DNA from: Microcaldota archaeon
GTDB taxonomy: Archaea > Micrarchaeota > Micrarchaeia > Micrarchaeales > Micrarchaeaceae
Direction: 5' to 3'
Length of the DNA stretch: 64,000 nt
Assembly (NCBI GenBank): GCA_021799635.1
Contig: JAJZAB010000003.1
Coordinates: forward strand, 1-64,000
In this document: in pieces, positions 36,331 to 48,236 of the stretch
Position numbering within the stretch: the stretch's first letter is position 1
Layout of the letters: the number at the start of each line of letters is the position of its first letter
Position numbers and translations under genes: made by a program
Notes under the pieces: generated by a model
The model's input: the letters and a program-made list of their open reading frames with translations, nothing else
What the model was told of the DNA's origin: nothing
The model's database searches: none

Positions 36331-36984
36331 ATGGTGGAGCCGATTGAACTGGCACTTAAGAGCGAAGAACAGGTACGGTTAGCACGGCTGCAAGATGTTG
36401 TAGTCCAAGTTCTATTTGAATTGGACCAGAAGTTAGTAATGCATGGAGGTACAGCAATATGGCGATGCTATAATGGCAATAGATTCTCAGAGGACATAGA
36501 CTTGTATGCCAGCGATAAGGCAATAGAATCATTAGTAAACCAGCTTCCATGGCAGCAGACAAAAAGAGGCCTCAGATTGGATTACCCTAAATATAGTGAT
36601 AGCAATAGAGAATTCTATCTATCCAATGAATTCTCAAAAGTCAAAGTGCAGGTGCAAAAACCGGTAAAAGGATTAAAAGCAATACAAATGCCTTACAAAA
36701 AAGCCGACGGCACCAATTTTGTGATAAATACGATCTCGGTTAATGATTTTATTTTTGAAAAGATTACGGCTTATGAAAGCAGATATTACATTAGGGATTT
36801 GTATGACATATACCACATGATTATAGGTTATCCAATTAATTCAAAATCAAAAACTGGCTTAAAAAAATTCCTAAGACGCATAAAAGAACCAAAAGAGGCA
36901 AATTCATTAAGAGAGTTTGTCTATGTGGGCAATGCACCAAGTTTTGATGAAATGATTAAAGCAATTAAATGGAGATTGGAATGA
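36331..36984 (+). CDS. AbiEii-like nucleotidyltransferase toxin
   Basis: LVMHGGTAIWRCYNGNRFSEDIDLYAS. Confidence 0.85.
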   Translation: MVEPIELALKSEEQVRLARLQDVVVQVLFELDQKLVMHGGTAIWRCYNGNRFSEDIDLYASDKAIESLVNQLPWQQTKRGLRLDYPKYSDSNREFYLSNEFSKVKVQVQKPVKGLKAIQMPYKKADGTNFVINTISVNDFIFEKITAYESRYYIRDLYDIYHMIIGYPINSKSKTGLKKFLRRIKEPKEANSLREFVYVGNAPSFDEMIKAIKWRLE

Positions 36985-37622
36985 AATACATTGGAAAATT
37001 AATTGAAACATTTAACAGCCCGTCTTTTCCCGTTTTTACAATTAATGATGTTAAATTGCTTTTTACAGGGACTTCGATGACCGATGGGTATCTACACCTG
37101 ATGATGCATAATCTCCTGAAAAAACGCAAAATTACGCGAATTACGCGTGGTGTATACACTTTCCATAATAACGAGGCGCTGGTTGCTGGTTTTGCCTTTT
37201 CTCCATTTTATTTCGGTTTGGAGCATGCGCTTAGAATTCATAAATTTTCACTACAAGTTACAAATCCATTAGTAATAACCTCTAGGAATGTAAGAAATGG
37301 AGTAAAACATTTTTCTGGCAGGAATTACGTGGTTTATAAACTGCCTGCAAAGTACTTGTTTGGATATGCTTTGAAAAATTATGCTGATATGTGGATACCA
37401 GTCTCGGACATAGAAAAGACAGTAATAGATATGATTTATTTCAAAATTGCTATAAGAGATGAAATATGGCCAAAGCTCCTGAAAGAGATTAACACGCAGA
37501 AGCTTAAGAATTATCTAAAGAACTATAATCCAAGATTTAGAAGCAAAGTTATCAATATAATCGCCATATCAAAGGCCAGGAACATTGCTAATATCCGGGA
37601 GCTCGAAAAAAGTCGAGTTTGA
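36969..37622 (+). CDS. AbiEi-like wHTH antitoxin
   Basis: KITRITRGVYTFHN...SPFYFGLEHALRIH...NPLVITSRNVRNG...VSDIEKTVIDMIYF; overlaps the AbiEii gene. Confidence 0.8.
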   Translation: MEIGMKYIGKLIETFNSPSFPVFTINDVKLLFTGTSMTDGYLHLMMHNLLKKRKITRITRGVYTFHNNEALVAGFAFSPFYFGLEHALRIHKFSLQVTNPLVITSRNVRNGVKHFSGRNYVVYKLPAKYLFGYALKNYADMWIPVSDIEKTVIDMIYFKIAIRDEIWPKLLKEINTQKLKNYLKNYNPRFRSKVINIIAISKARNIANIRELEKSRV

Positions 37623-43003: not shown

Positions 43004-43906
43004 CTATTCTGCCTCAAGCCTTTTGAGGTCCAAAACAAGGCTTTCCACGCTCCTGCAGTCTCCACTGAAGGCTTTGGAGCCGTCATGGCTGTTGATGTTC
43101 CTTCCGATATAACCCCTGCTGGCGTACCTAGATATGTTTTTGTTTTCCTTGGAGACGAAGCTGTTTATGCTGCCGTACTGATGCCTTATCACGGCGAAAA
43201 GGTCAGCCTTGTGGTGCGGATCTGCTTTTTCCACGTCATTCACCACGGCGTTGTACTTCATTATTATGAGCTGCCACGGGGCTACTACCCTTGCCTCTGA
43301 CGTTTCGCCCTCGACAGTTACTGCGATGTTCCTGCCAAACCTAAGGACCTCGTTCACCGGCACCCCGCTCACTGTGCCATCAGCCTTCTTGCTGTCTGCA
43401 AAGGTCTCCGGGCTTCCGGCCGGCTTGAAGAAAAGGTCAACCTTTATACCTGTTTCTCTGTCTGTAAGCTTTGTCATTATGCCGTTTGGCTTGAAGTTCA
43501 TTCTCTCTGCCATGGCCCTAAGGTCGTTCAGCCTGCTCTCGGTAAGCTCCCCTTTTATCCTTACTGCGATGTCTATATCAGGGCTGAGCCTTTCTTCGCC
43601 TCTGCACAGCGCGTTCACAGCCCTTCCGCCAAGAAGGACAGACCTCGAGAAGCCCTTATTCGTATCCAGCATAGCGTCTACCCTATTCATTATGTCTTTT
43701 ATGCTATGTGCAGGTATGCTGTAGCGCGTTCTCAGCATTGACCTGAGCTCATCATCACCGGTTCTTATGCTAAACAGCTCCGCGTGACGATAGCCGTCTT
43801 GGTGCAGACTGCTGAAAGTTGTGCTTGCCATCAAATCAATTTTTATCGCGTTTGCACGACGCATCCATACGCGCTGTGGCGCGGGATGATAAATACTGTT
43901 ATACAA
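43004..43906 (-). CDS. Nucleotidyltransferase-fold protein (AbiEii/MNT-like)
   Basis: LLGGRAVNALCRGEERLSPDIDIAVRI (GG...DxD); likely start MASTTF internal to ORF. Confidence 0.7.
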   Translation of the reverse strand: MYNSIYHPAPQRVWMRRANAIKIDLMASTTFSSLHQDGYRHAELFSIRTGDDELRSMLRTRYSIPAHSIKDIMNRVDAMLDTNKGFSRSVLLGGRAVNALCRGEERLSPDIDIAVRIKGELTESRLNDLRAMAERMNFKPNGIMTKLTDRETGIKVDLFFKPAGSPETFADSKKADGTVSGVPVNEVLRFGRNIAVTVEGETSEARVVAPWQLIIMKYNAVVNDVEKADPHHKADLFAVIRHQYGSINSFVSKENKNISRYASRGYIGRNINSHDGSKAFSGDCRSVESLVLDLKRLEAE

Positions 43907-43930
43907 ATATTTATATATTTTCTGTGTAAG

Positions 43931-44575
43931 TCACGATGGGCTCGGTGCTGCCTCTACCCTCCTTGATATGCCTGGAATTTCAAGCCTGCGCATCCAGCCG
44001 GTGAACTGCTTTGCGCCGCCTTCAACCCATCCGTTCTTGTTGTACCTGTACAGATTATCGGAATTCTTCTCTAGGAAGCTAGCTGACGAGCTGAACTGCT
44101 GGTTTATGAGCTCGGCGATGTTCTCTTCCCTGCGTCTGTTTGGCTGTGCTGCTTTCTGTATGTCGTTGTACTCCATGACTACCAGCTGCCAGAAGCCAAG
44201 CACTGCGACCTGCCTCTTTTGCCCTTCAACCATATCGTATGACCTGTTTGCTGTGTTGATTAGCTCAGATGTAGGTATCCTAAATATTCTGCCCTGCGGT
44301 ACCTCGTCTGCATACACTATCCTTGCAGATATCCTGCTGCCGGGCAGCCTCATCTGCACCGGCTCTATGCCGCTCCTTGACATTATTGGCCCCCTTTCGA
44401 CAAGAAACTCCATTTCGCCTGGGCCCACGTTGCGGTTCCTGTAGAAGTTGTCAGCCCATGCGCCAATGAGCACAGACCTGTCGCCGAACTCGGCCCTTAT
44501 GCATTCTACGAGCCTCATTCTTTCTATAAGAGGCGCCTCGATCATTTCTGTAGAGTTTCTGGTTTGCGTTGGCAT
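43931..44575 (-). CDS. Degenerate paralog of the 43004-43906 NTase-fold protein
   Basis: VLIGAWADNFYRNRNVGPGEMEFLVERG in place of GG..DID; shared WQLvvMeYNd and SFleKNsdNlyRY regions. Confidence 0.6.
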   Translation of the reverse strand: MPTQTRNSTEMIEAPLIERMRLVECIRAEFGDRSVLIGAWADNFYRNRNVGPGEMEFLVERGPIMSRSGIEPVQMRLPGSRISARIVYADEVPQGRIFRIPTSELINTANRSYDMVEGQKRQVAVLGFWQLVVMEYNDIQKAAQPNRRREENIAELINQQFSSSASFLEKNSDNLYRYNKNGWVEGGAKQFTGWMRRLEIPGISRRVEAAPSPS

Positions 44576-44717
44576 GTGTTACACTGCTGGTTTTGTTTTC
44601 TAGAGCACGTAAATTATCTTCATTTATATAGGAATTATGCCGGGGGTAATATTTATGCATTACCATTATGTACGGCTTTGCAGCCTTCATGCCGCAGGCG
44701 CTGTGCAAGCGCAGGAA

Positions 44718-44963
44718 TCAGTGCCTTTTCTTTCCTAGTTCTATTGCAACCGCGCTGTGCGCCCTGTTCAGCACAATGGTTATGCCGCCGTACTTCCTGA
44801 CAACCTGGTTTAGATGGGTTTTGTAGAACTGCAGCGCCTCGATGTCACCGTTGGATGCCTCCCTCTTGTATATCTGGCACAGATAGCAGTTGTGCGCCCT
44901 CTTTTCCCCGTTGCCCTCCTTGTATACCTTTAATACCACTTTGTCCGTCGCGTCATTTTTCAT
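44718..44963 (-). CDS. Small hypothetical protein with CxxC
   Basis: RAHNCYLCQIYKREASNGDIEALQFYKTHLNQVVRKYGGITIVLNR. Confidence 0.4.
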   Translation of the reverse strand: MKNDATDKVVLKVYKEGNGEKRAHNCYLCQIYKREASNGDIEALQFYKTHLNQVVRKYGGITIVLNRAHSAVAIELGKKRH

Positions 44964-45220: not shown

Positions 45221-46282
45221 CTAAGCATATTCTTTCATATCCCTAAGCAGGTACCCAAGGTAGTCAGGCCTGACATCTGTAGCTGCCCGCGTGTGCGGCC
45301 CCAGCTCGGTGTGCTTTGCATTCCTGCCAGCTATTCTGTATATTGGCGGCGCGCCCACCATACTAACATCAATTGATGTGGAGGATTCACCAATAAAGCA
45401 AAGGATAAATTCGAGGTCGCCCTTGGAAGAGAGCTTGTGGGCCACGCTGTAGCCGAGCTCTATTTCCTTCTTGTATCCTATCATCTTTATGGCATCGCCA
45501 AGCAGTCTTGTCGCGGCCAGTGACTTGTATGCATTATCGCTTTCCTGGTCAACCTTGCTCTCTATTATTCCGACTATCTCTGCCGCGTGTTCCTTTATGG
45601 ATTTGCTCGCAAATTCCCCGATCTTCTTATACGTCTCCTCAACGCCTTTTGAAGCATCTGTGCCAGAGCTCTTAAGGCTTATCTCCTTTCCAGTAAAATA
45701 CATCACCGAAGTGAGCGAGCTGCGCAGCATGTAATCGTTCACGTCATCGATACCTGCGAGCTCTATTGCGGCGGTCTTTAAAAGCTTGATGTCATCGCTG
45801 TACCTCTCTATCGAGTTGTTTATCTGGATGTCGGCCAAGCCATCATACCCAAACCATATGTGCGCAGAATGCAGCTTGTTGTAATCGTGCCTGGCTAGGC
45901 TGCTGAGGAAACCGGGAACCACAACCGTTGCTTTCTCCGATGCATCCTTTATAGAGCTCAGGAGCATTTTGCCCATCTCATGCGCAGTTTCAAACTCTCC
46001 GTTCCTTTCCAGAGCGGTGATGGCGGAGTTGGCCATGTGACCTACGATGTAAACGGTTGAAATCGACGGGCCTTCAAGTATTGGGAGGCAGATGGCCTTC
46101 TTAAACGCCGACAGCCTTTCTTCCTTGCCTGCCCCTGATATAAAATCAACAAACTCCTTTGATGCAGCCTCGATTTTTTCCATGCTCGGATTGCGCTCCA
46201 TCTCCAGCATCCGTATGCTCCTGCTTATGTGCATTACAAAATCCTGCGTGTATTTTTCTCTGGTGGTCATGTTGATTCCCAA
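45221..46282 (-). CDS. Hypothetical protein
   Basis: Long helical ORF with no recognisable motif, GC-rich coding character. Confidence 0.6.
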   Translation of the reverse strand: MGINMTTREKYTQDFVMHISRSIRMLEMERNPSMEKIEAASKEFVDFISGAGKEERLSAFKKAICLPILEGPSISTVYIVGHMANSAITALERNGEFETAHEMGKMLLSSIKDASEKATVVVPGFLSSLARHDYNKLHSAHIWFGYDGLADIQINNSIERYSDDIKLLKTAAIELAGIDDVNDYMLRSSLTSVMYFTGKEISLKSSGTDASKGVEETYKKIGEFASKSIKEHAAEIVGIIESKVDQESDNAYKSLAATRLLGDAIKMIGYKKEIELGYSVAHKLSSKGDLEFILCFIGESSTSIDVSMVGAPPIYRIAGRNAKHTELGPHTRAATDVRPDYLGYLLRDMKEYA

Positions 46283-46381: not shown

Positions 46382-47338
46382 ATGAACAATTCGAAAGCCG
46401 ACAATCCCACACCATTTGGAGGTGGGTCATTCGCCCATTTGGTTTCAGTGCCGCTGGACCCGCGGATATCTGAAAGCATTGGAAAGAAGGGCTCGCAGAA
46501 CGGCATAACCTTTTACAACAGGAGGGCGGGAGACGATGTGATTGTGTGCCTATCGCCGACCTCGATAGCTGATAAATTTTATGCGGCGGTGCAGACGATT
46601 ATGCTGGCCAGCCAAGTGGTAGTCAGCACTGAAAACCCGGATCAGCTCTTCGGCGAGGTCGTGGTCGCTTGCGCCATGCTCGGCAAGCGGATGATATTCA
46701 CCGATGACAACGACGTTGCTGGCCTGTTATCTGGGGTTGGCGCCGTAGATTATGCCGTCTCGTCAAGAGATGAGCTGATCAAAAACATAACGCAGTATAA
46801 AGGCGCCGCGGTACCACTGGCAAAAAGGGTGGACCTGGACAAGGCCTTCCCGGTGAAGGGGCTGGGCACCGTAGCGCTTGGGATAGTGACAGGAGGGACG
46901 CTTTCCAAGCACGACGAACTCTATCACAGTTCAGGGAAAAAGGTTTTGGTAAGATCAATACAGAGCCTGGATGTGGATATAGATTCGGCGGAGATCGGCA
47001 CCAGGGTGGGAATTGCCCTGAAGAATATAGAGCCTGACGAGATCGCGAGCGGCGACCTCCTTACAGAAAATGAGTGCGGCAAAGCGAGCGCCGTGACGGC
47101 AGGGGTGGTGCAGAGCGGCATTGCAAAGGAGGACATGGTGAATGGCAACAGGTATATTGCCGTTTCGAACTTTAGCTATTCGAATGCAAAGGTTGATGAG
47201 GTAGATCCCGCAGGAGGAAAGATAAAACTCACTTTTGAGAGAGGCATGACGCTTCTTGATGGGGATAGGATTGTGCTGCTGCGCCAGAAGGCGCCAAGGG
47301 CGTTTGCTGTCTGCAGTGTGCTGGATAAGAAGAGATGA
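46382..47338 (+). CDS. EF-Tu/SelB-like translation-factor homolog lacking the GTPase P-loop
   Basis: VKGLGTVALGIVTGGTLSKHDELYHSSGKKVLVRSIQSLDVDIDSAEIGTRVGIALKNIEPDEIASGDLL is EF-Tu domain-2-like; no GHVDxGK. Confidence 0.7.
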   Translation: MNNSKADNPTPFGGGSFAHLVSVPLDPRISESIGKKGSQNGITFYNRRAGDDVIVCLSPTSIADKFYAAVQTIMLASQVVVSTENPDQLFGEVVVACAMLGKRMIFTDDNDVAGLLSGVGAVDYAVSSRDELIKNITQYKGAAVPLAKRVDLDKAFPVKGLGTVALGIVTGGTLSKHDELYHSSGKKVLVRSIQSLDVDIDSAEIGTRVGIALKNIEPDEIASGDLLTENECGKASAVTAGVVQSGIAKEDMVNGNRYIAVSNFSYSNAKVDEVDPAGGKIKLTFERGMTLLDGDRIVLLRQKAPRAFAVCSVLDKKR

Positions 47339-47360: not shown

Positions 47361-48236
47361 TCAGGCGTAGCCCTTGTTGGAATCATCGTCATAAACCCTT
47401 CTGAAGGCCGACATTATAAGCTTGTTCGCATACTTGGGCGACACCTTGAGCAGTTCCCCGAAGGTGCTGCCCTCGCCGACCAGTTCAAACCTCCAGTCTC
47501 CCTCAATGGACTTGTAGCTCCTCACAATAGCATACTCCTTGCTGCCTTCATGGTTAGTCGCGATGTACAGGCCTACAAAATCGGTGCCCTTCTTATCGCC
47601 AACACAAGTGTCGTCTTTGTATTCTATAGTATCTTTTATGCGCCACTCCACCAGGTTGCTGATGAAGCTGATGAGGTTTACTCCGCCTCCTTTATCTTCG
47701 CTCCTCGTCTTGAAATTGAAGTCGAACTTCTCTGTCCAGTGGAGAAGCTTTACGCCATCCAGGTATGTGACTACCCTTTCATCCCCAATCTTGAATTTTG
47801 GGAAATTGTTTTCGCTGTTCCGGACAGCCTCGCACATCACATCTCCGAACTTCATCACTATAGAATCCTTTGACTTCATCACTGATAGCCTTCCCTGCTC
47901 TGGCGCCGCAACGTCTATGAAAAGCGGATCCTCGCTTATCACAAATTTCTTTTCTGATAGCTGCGCTTCCGGGAGCTCATAGTCCATATCTGTGCTTTGG
48001 TCTGTCCCTGATATAATATTTACAGTGGCATAGCTGTTGCCGTCAAACATTGTAACCCCGTAGGCGTGCCTTCTCTCGCCGCCCTTTGCAGGTAGGGAGC
48101 CGAGTGACACTATGTCAACCTCCATGTTGTCCTTTATCAGCCTGATCTGCCTGTAGTCATCGCTCTGCCTTATTATGTCAACAGAGCCCTGCATTTTTGA
48201 GTTGTCCGCTACCTGAAACCTTCTTGTGCTGAACAT
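47361..48236 (-). CDS. Hypothetical protein
   Basis: 291-aa ORF, no recognised motif. Confidence 0.55.
   Translation of the reverse strand: MFSTRRFQVADNSKMQGSVDIIRQSDDYRQIRLIKDNMEVDIVSLGSLPAKGGERRHAYGVTMFDGNSYATVNIISGTDQSTDMDYELPEAQLSEKKFVISEDPLFIDVAAPEQGRLSVMKSKDSIVMKFGDVMCEAVRNSENNFPKFKIGDERVVTYLDGVKLLHWTEKFDFNFKTRSEDKGGGVNLISFISNLVEWRIKDTIEYKDDTCVGDKKGTDFVGLYIATNHEGSKEYAIVRSYKSIEGDWRFELVGEGSTFGELLKVSPKYANKLIMSAFRRVYDDDSNKGYA

What the first reader, a model, noticed from the sequence alone, without database searches (positions are those of the whole stretch)
43004..44575. Tandem nucleotidyltransferase-fold pair, one catalytically degenerate (DID to EME)
43004-43906 has LLGGRAVNALCRGEERLSPDIDIAVRI; the adjacent 43931-44575 protein has VLIGAWADNFYRNRNVGPGEMEFLV at the equivalent place, and both share WQL(I/V)(I/V)M(K/E)YN and SF(V/L)(S)KE/KN..(I/L)(S/Y)RY segments. 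An active NTase with a pseudo-NTase partner in the GC-rich core may be a new TA-like or signalling pair, possibly lineage-specific.
Basis: partly seen in the sequence, partly recalled or inferred. Interest (0 to 1): 0.6.

Follow-up and report, generated by a model that had tools for sequence, protein, structure and literature searches.

The report
Active enzyme paired with dead twin
A tiny, poorly known archaeon carries, side by side, a gene for a nucleotide-transferring enzyme related to bacterial tRNA-modifying toxins and a related gene whose catalytic residues have been replaced; the same working-plus-dead pairing turns up in four genera, at least twice independently, which suggests the dead copy is a real partner or regulator and not a decaying remnant.

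Summary
43004-43864 (-) encodes an AbiEii/MenT-like nucleotidyltransferase (NTase) with every catalytic position intact. 43931-44575 (-) encodes a paralogue in which GGR..DID..K..D has become GAW..EME..E..N. Homology is significant: BLASTP E 6e-14; a family profile built without any degenerate copy finds it at E 5.5e-10; profile-profile probability 98%. In AbiEii, D-to-E changes in DhD abolished toxicity (PMC3985639); the second protein has both, plus motif III and IV losses, so it is very probably catalytically dead.

The pair is not a local accident. Within the 301-genome phylum, all in one family, same-strand pairs of one intact and one degenerate NTase occur in six genomes of four genera (window, G227, G233-235, G218). 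All 39 single copies read are intact. G218's dead copy (DID to NIN, third D to N) is sister to its own active neighbour; one origin for all six dead copies is rejected (p 0.013). Dead copies in one genus are under purifying selection (dN/dS about 0.2).

Best reading: an AbiEii-like NTase module in which a dead paralogue binds and regulates the active one, probably restraining it. The toxin-antitoxin role and the direction of regulation are inferred. New variant of a known kind.

The parts
43004..43864 (-).
   Evidence: ORF; A4 profile hit E 1.1e-63; all family-invariant catalytic residues present; the A4 profile matches MenT1 8AN4 at E 6e-8
43571..43579 (-). Codons for D110-I111-D112 (motif II, DhD)
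   Evidence: Invariant D110 and D112 in the A4 family alignment
43436..43438 (-). Codon for D157, third carboxylate (IKVDLFF)
   Evidence: Invariant in A4
43256..43258 (-). Codon for K217 (motif III, IIMKYN)
   Evidence: Invariant in A4
43202..43204 (-). Codon for D235 (motif IV)
   Evidence: Invariant in A4
43905..43920 (-). TATA-like element (AAATATATAAATATTT) between the two genes, suggesting the NTase can have its own promoter
   Evidence: Read directly from the sequence; not tested by any scan
43931..44575 (-). Pseudo-nucleotidyltransferase, 214 aa, paralogue of the active NTase
   Evidence: ORF; family HMM E 5.5e-10; HHalign probability 98.2; orthologue in G227 at 30-32% identity
44456..44464 (-). 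G-A-W in place of the family's G-G-R (motif I)
   Evidence: Residue table; GxWA is shared by the pseudo copies of G227 and G233-235
44408..44416 (-). E54-M55-E56 in place of DID (motif II)
   Evidence: EME is also in G227 (NVGPLEMEF)
44171..44173 (-). E135 in place of the motif III lysine (VVMEYN)
   Evidence: Residue table
44120..44122 (-). N152 in place of the motif IV aspartate
   Evidence: Residue table
44622..44630 (-). TATA-like element upstream of the pseudo-NTase (TATATAAAT)
   Evidence: Read directly from the sequence; not tested by any scan
44718..44963 (-). Neighbour: 81-aa CxxC protein of a conserved family; adjacent to the pair here and in G227, but present without the pair in most genomes, so probably not part of the module

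Best explanation
The two genes are a small module: an active AbiEii/DUF1814-like nucleotidyltransferase and a catalytically dead paralogue made from a nearby gene copy. The active protein probably transfers a nucleotide to an RNA end such as the tRNA acceptor stem, as MenT toxins do. The dead protein keeps sequence similarity to the NTase core and the C-terminal helical part but has lost the metal and nucleotide chemistry. It most likely acts in trans by binding its active sibling (or the sibling's substrate) and regulating it, more probably restraining it than activating it. SHOWN: homology, loss of the catalytic residues, recurrence of the intact/dead pair, at least two origins, and purifying selection on the dead copies of one genus. 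INFERRED: catalytic inactivity (from published AbiEii mutants), physical interaction, the RNA substrate and the direction of regulation.
For: Homology. All 45 intact members read (39 single, 6 paired) keep DxD, the motif III K and the motif IV D; the six degenerate copies do not keep this set, and each sits directly beside an intact one on the same strand (gene orders). G227 has pseudo then active, with EME conserved; G233, G234 and G235 have pseudo then active, with SIE or GIE; G218 has active then pseudo, with NIN and the third D changed to N. Gaps between the genes are about 30-75 bp where the starts are clear. Independent origin: G218 active and pseudo are sisters (100/98) and one clade of all six pseudo copies is rejected, p-AU 0.013. 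Selection: dN/dS 0.19-0.22 in the dead copies of genus g15, 0.10-0.13 in their active neighbours. The 26-residue former active-site stretch is the best conserved part between the window and G227 pseudo copies, 17/26 against 30% overall, p 0.004. Dy et al. (PMC3985639): D67E, D69E, K173A and D192A abolish AbiEii toxicity; G49A/G50A, D67A/D69A and D192A reduce GTP binding. MenT1 is the best solved relative of the family profile (E 6e-8); MenT proteins extend tRNA acceptor stems (PMC10435456).
Against: No structure of usable quality (mean pLDDT 42.6 and 52.6), so neither the pseudo protein's fold nor any interface is shown. G228, with a close relative of the active protein, has no detected pseudo partner, so the partner is not essential. 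The active family occurs in 88 of 301 genomes, mostly without a detected pseudo partner. TATA-like elements before both genes argue against strict co-transcription. MenT1 protomers do not dimerise by themselves (PMC10435456), so dimerisation is not a family trait that can be assumed.
Confidence: 0.5

Rival explanations
1. Heteromeric enzyme: the dead paralogue is a positive subunit that positions substrate or allosterically activates the active NTase, as FAM20A does for the kinase FAM20C, instead of an inhibitor.
For: The former active-site stretch stays the most conserved part of the pseudo protein, as expected of a binding surface. NTase-fold pseudoenzymes form heterodimers that bind dsRNA in NF45-NF90 (PMC11952958). 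FAM20A/FAM20C is a precedent for activation by a dead homologue (PMC10211241).
Against: The intact family usually occurs alone, as in G228, so no partner is needed for whatever the active protein does there. NF45 and NF90 are both inactive, unlike this pair.
Confidence: 0.22
2. The dead copy has a separate role (for instance as an RNA-binding protein, or a decoy for a viral or other inhibitor of the active NTase) and stays next to its paralogue because it arose by tandem duplication.
For: Two TATA-like elements; patchy distribution; the G218 dead copy keeps the whole nucleotide-site motif except three Asp to Asn changes, which would leave a substrate or inhibitor mimic.
Against: If position were only a legacy of duplication, degenerate copies away from an active copy should also be seen; none were among the 51 members read, though very diverged single copies could be missed.
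Confidence: 0.17
3. The second protein is not inactive: glutamates in place of aspartates, or other residues, support an altered chemistry or a different nucleotide reaction.
For: In the window and G227 the two acidic side chains of motif II are replaced by acidic ones and this EME is conserved.
Against: In AbiEii the same D-to-E replacements abolished toxicity (PMC3985639). Motif I, the third carboxylate and the motif III lysine are also lost in both, and the motif IV aspartate in the window copy. Dead copies in other genera have S/G-I-E or N-I-N, which are not chemically equivalent.
Confidence: 0.06
4. The second gene is a decaying duplicate with no function.
For: It is more diverged than the active copy, and its N-terminal part is shortened.
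Against: Open reading frames in six genomes; dN/dS 0.19-0.22 where it could be measured; local conservation peak at the former active site between genera; at least two independent occurrences.
Confidence: 0.05

Closest known systems
AbiEii / MenT nucleotidyltransferase toxins (DUF1814, PF08843; AbiE and MenAT systems)
   Same: The active protein has hGG..DhD, an arginine before DhD, a third Asp, a motif III Lys and a motif IV Asp; its family profile matches MenT1 (PDB 8AN4) at E 6e-8
   Different: P0001 itself falls below the Pfam cut-off; no AbiEi-type or MenA-type antitoxin beside it; the neighbour is instead a dead paralogue of the NTase itself
HEPN-MNT (type VII) toxin-antitoxin modules
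   Same: A two-gene module with one DNA polymerase beta-type nucleotidyltransferase, common in archaea
   Different: No Pfam HEPN match in either protein; the partner is an NTase-like protein, not a HEPN
NF45-NF90 (eukaryotic NTase-fold pseudoenzymes)
   Same: NTase-fold proteins without catalytic residues working as a two-paralogue set
   Different: Both subunits are inactive there; the lineage is unrelated and binds dsRNA; here one member is intact
Active enzyme / dead paralogue pairs such as FAM20C-FAM20A or trypanosome AdoMetDC-prozyme
   Same: A dead paralogue kept beside its intact relative, with regulation as the precedent function
   Different: Other enzyme families; regulation is not demonstrated here (the AdoMetDC case is from a reference title and general knowledge)

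Membership tests
AbiEii/DUF1814 NTase (43004-43864) | Pfam PF08843 match at the curated cut-off | tested here: not met
   P0001 16.1 bits against a cut-off of 22.5, E 0.011; 11 of 18 members of its family match at E 0.01 or better, some above the cut-off, e.g. 26.8 bits
AbiEii/DUF1814 NTase (43004-43864) | Motifs I and II: hG[G/S] ... R ... DhD | tested here: met
   LLGGRAVNALCRGEERLSPDIDIAV; G93 G94 R106 D110 D112 invariant in the family
AbiEii/DUF1814 NTase (43004-43864) | Motif III lysine in a hydrophobic setting (KLxA..R in COG4849) | tested here: met
   IIMKYN, K217 invariant; aligned with MenT1 IAMKLLA; the trailing Arg of the COG4849 form is absent
AbiEii/DUF1814 NTase (43004-43864) | Motif IV +DxxD | tested here: inconclusive
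   P0001 has HHKADL: the last Asp (D235) is present and invariant, the first Asp is not; many relatives have KDxxD
AbiEii/DUF1814 NTase (43004-43864) | Transfers nucleotide to tRNA / inhibits growth | not testable with these tools
   Needs a wet experiment
Type IV AbiE or MenAT toxin-antitoxin system | Adjacent AbiEi-type regulator or other known MenA-type antitoxin | tested here: not met
   The neighbours are the pseudo-NTase (no Pfam match) and an amino acid permease; no PADLOC match for either protein of the pair
HEPN-MNT module | HEPN partner gene | tested here: not met
   No HEPN match in P0001 or P0002; the partner is NTase-like
Catalytically dead NTase paralogue (43931-44575) | Homologous to the NTase family | tested here: met
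Catalytically dead NTase paralogue (43931-44575) | Residues shown essential in AbiEii are replaced | tested here: met
   Residue table against the mutants in PMC3985639
Catalytically dead NTase paralogue (43931-44575) | NTase fold retained | tested here: inconclusive
   AlphaFold2 with a three-sequence alignment, mean pLDDT 42.6
Catalytically dead NTase paralogue (43931-44575) | Under selection, not decaying | tested here: met
   dN/dS 0.19-0.22 in the g15 counterparts, local conservation peak between window and G227; dN/dS of the window gene itself could not be measured for lack of close relatives

The most novel reading that the evidence does not exclude
An AbiEii/MenT-like NTase whose cognate antitoxin or regulator is a dead copy of the toxin itself, evolved at least twice in one archaeal family, by D-to-N changes in one lineage and by wholesale active-site replacement in another.
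Probability: 0.3. Interest if true: 0.75.

Novelty: new variant of a known kind. Interest (0 to 1): 0.56.

Why it matters
Toxin-type NTases of the AbiEii/MenT family are known with antitoxins unrelated to the toxin. A repeated pairing of an intact NTase with its own dead paralogue suggests a different way to control such enzymes, and a simple evolutionary route to a regulator (duplicate, then lose catalysis). It gives a concrete, testable module in Micrarchaeota, where most genes are unexplained, and a natural set of dead variants, including a triple Asp-to-Asn one. Searches of the open-access full-text library found no description of such a pair, though subscription papers are not covered.

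Tried and rejected
Structure: AlphaFold2 for both proteins with the only sequences allowed for that tool (window plus L003) gave low confidence, and the Foldseek search with the P0001 model found nothing usable; no fold or dimer claim is made from them. Mobile elements: no relatives in viral contigs, plasmids or phages. Small CxxC neighbour as a third module member: it flanks the pair in both the window and G227, but 33 genomes carry it, mostly without the pair, so it was set aside. A shared partner gene of the single copies, as a hint of a replaced antitoxin: none general; recurrent neighbours are lineage-specific (HD-domain gene, LD-carboxypeptidase). Single origin of all dead copies: rejected. 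A phylum-wide repeat search covered the same 301 genomes as the class. Gene conversion between the two window genes: an 82% identical 28-nt stretch sits on the conserved WQL..M.YN motif and needs no conversion.

Full report
WHAT IS THERE. The window lies in a 749-kb Micrarchaeota-like genome (nearest named relative 'Candidatus Micrarchaeaceae archaeon'). On the minus strand, 44575-43931 encodes a 214-aa protein (P0002) and, directly downstream, an ORF ending at 43004 encodes P0001. A second TATA-like element (44630-44622) precedes P0002 (by eye).

HOMOLOGY. P0001 and P0002 align at 28% identity over 124 residues, E 6e-14. An HMM made only from intact relatives finds P0002 at E 5.5e-10 in two stretches, one spanning the GG-motif region and one the C-terminal part. 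HHalign of P0002 plus its G227 orthologue against 18 intact NTases gives probability 98.2, E 4.9e-14, aligning GGRAVN with GAWADN and DID with EME.

WHAT P0001 IS. Pfam gives only a sub-threshold AbiEii match for P0001, but 11 of 18 members of its family match AbiEii, and the family profile matches the M. tuberculosis toxin MenT1 (8AN4) at E 6e-8 with the catalytic positions aligned. The invariant residues of the 18-member alignment are G93 G94 R95 R106 D110 D112 D157 K217 D235, which correspond to AbiEii motifs I-IV as defined and mutated by Dy et al. 2014 (PMC3985639). P0001 is therefore an intact NTase that works like, and is probably a divergent relative of, AbiEii/MenT; strict Pfam membership is not met.

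WHAT P0002 IS. At the same positions P0002 has G, A, W, E, E, R, E, N; its R48 may be the counterpart of R106, since one alignment pairs them and another leaves a gap. Dy et al. report that D67E or D69E alone abolished AbiEii toxicity, as did K173A and D192A, and that the D67A/D69A and D192A variants bound GTP poorly. P0002 carries both D-to-E changes together with changes at the Lys and the motif IV Asp. Catalytic inactivity is thus well supported by analogy, but not tested.

THE PAIR RECURS. Searches of the class, which is also the whole phylum as held (301 genomes), found the active family in 88 genomes and the P0002-type family strongly in five. Reading the loci showed six same-strand pairs: the window (genus g1), G227 (g14; pseudo 71-781, active 814-1668), G233, G234 and G235 (g15; pseudo upstream of active), and G218 (g13; active 1462-2184, pseudo 2238-2924). 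The dead copies read EME, EME, GIE, SIE, SIE and NIN where DhD is expected. The window, G227 and g15 copies share GxWA in place of GGRA. The g15 copies are assigned by profile: HHalign probability 93.9, E 1.6e-7, and E 1e-7 to 5e-11 with an HMM that includes the window and G227 pseudo copies but no g15 pseudo copy. The G218 dead copy keeps GGRAVN, the Lys and the last Asp but has Asn at all three carboxylates. In the table the third-carboxylate column is misaligned for the g15 active proteins and G252, which have an Asp a few residues away (AADIN, LDIN).

NOT CHANCE. Of 51 family members read, 39 single copies and 6 paired ones are intact, and the 6 degenerate ones are each beside an intact one. 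If six degenerate labels fell at random on 51 genes, exactly one per pair has probability 3.6e-6; with near relatives collapsed to four pairs it is 9e-5, and counting only two independent origins it is 0.004. Caveat: single degenerate copies too diverged for the profiles would be missed; P0002 itself was not reported.

EVOLUTION AND SELECTION. In a 39-protein tree, G218 active and dead copies are sisters (100/98) and the five GxWA dead copies group together with moderate support (86/86). One clade of all six dead copies is rejected (p-AU 0.013); separate origins for the window/G227 and g15 dead copies are not rejected. So there were at least two, perhaps three, origins. In g15, dN/dS is 0.19-0.22 for the dead copies, 0.10-0.13 for the active ones and 0.06 for one neighbouring gene, with dS near 0.8-1.25, so values are rough. 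Between the window and G227 dead copies, the best conserved 26-residue stretch is the former active site (17/26 against 30% overall; p 0.004), which decay would not give.

CONTEXT. In other members of the window's genus the neighbourhood is M1 aminopeptidase, glycosyltransferase, small CxxC gene and EF-Tu domain-2 protein, without the pair, so the pair is an accessory addition there. No relatives were found in viral contigs, phages or plasmids. G228 has a close relative of P0001 but no detected pseudo partner, so the dead copy is not obligatory.

MECHANISM. The most economical reading is that the dead paralogue regulates the active one in trans, by binding it or its substrate. Restraint is favoured because relatives of the active protein are growth inhibitors that need an antitoxin, and because the active protein exists alone elsewhere, so it does not need an activator. 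Neither interaction nor toxicity is shown. The structure models were too weak to help.

NOVELTY. Searches of the open-access literature gave no such pair. Known AbiEii/MenT antitoxins are unrelated to the toxin. Pseudo-NTase partners are known in eukaryotes (NF45-NF90, PMC11952958), but with both subunits dead. I rate it a new variant of a known kind.

Noticed in passing
window 36331-37622 (+): A second, more typical AbiEii-type NTase (36331-36984, Pfam AbiEii E 9e-17) overlapping a 217-aa gene without a Pfam match; both have homologues next to each other in G221 (L075 2965-4262), suggesting an AbiEii module with an undescribed partner.
   Followed up: partly
window 44718-44963 (-): 81-aa protein with CYLCQIYKRE motif, found in 33 of 301 genomes of the phylum and part of a conserved neighbourhood (M1 aminopeptidase, glycosyltransferase, EF-Tu domain-2 protein) in the window's genus; no assigned Pfam family.
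   Followed up: partly
window 46382-47338 (+): Protein with an EF-Tu domain 2 match (E 2e-8) but no GTPase-domain match, conserved in relatives of the window genome, often near the small CxxC gene.
   Followed up: no
L171 2891-3490, L173 2962-3561, L174 3893-4489, L177 4315-4914: In four genomes of another family in the order (G146, G144, G122, G153) a more distant NTase of this superfamily is directly followed by a gene of about 199 aa; HD-domain Pfam matches were confirmed for the L173 and L174 copies. A possible NTase plus HD-phosphohydrolase pair.
   Followed up: partly
L062 9396-10031 (G208): AbiEi-like regulator (sub-threshold AbiEi_4 match) two genes away from the single NTase of G208, on the opposite strand.
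   Followed up: no
L108 4145-5512, L111 4320-5720, L113 4404-5930: The active NTases of genus g15 carry a C-terminal extension of about 200 aa that the window protein lacks; single copies in G246, G247, G166 and G252 have a shorter one.
   Followed up: no
window 45221-46282 (-) and 47361-48236 (-): Two large open reading frames without any Pfam match flanking the EF-Tu domain-2 gene.
   Followed up: no
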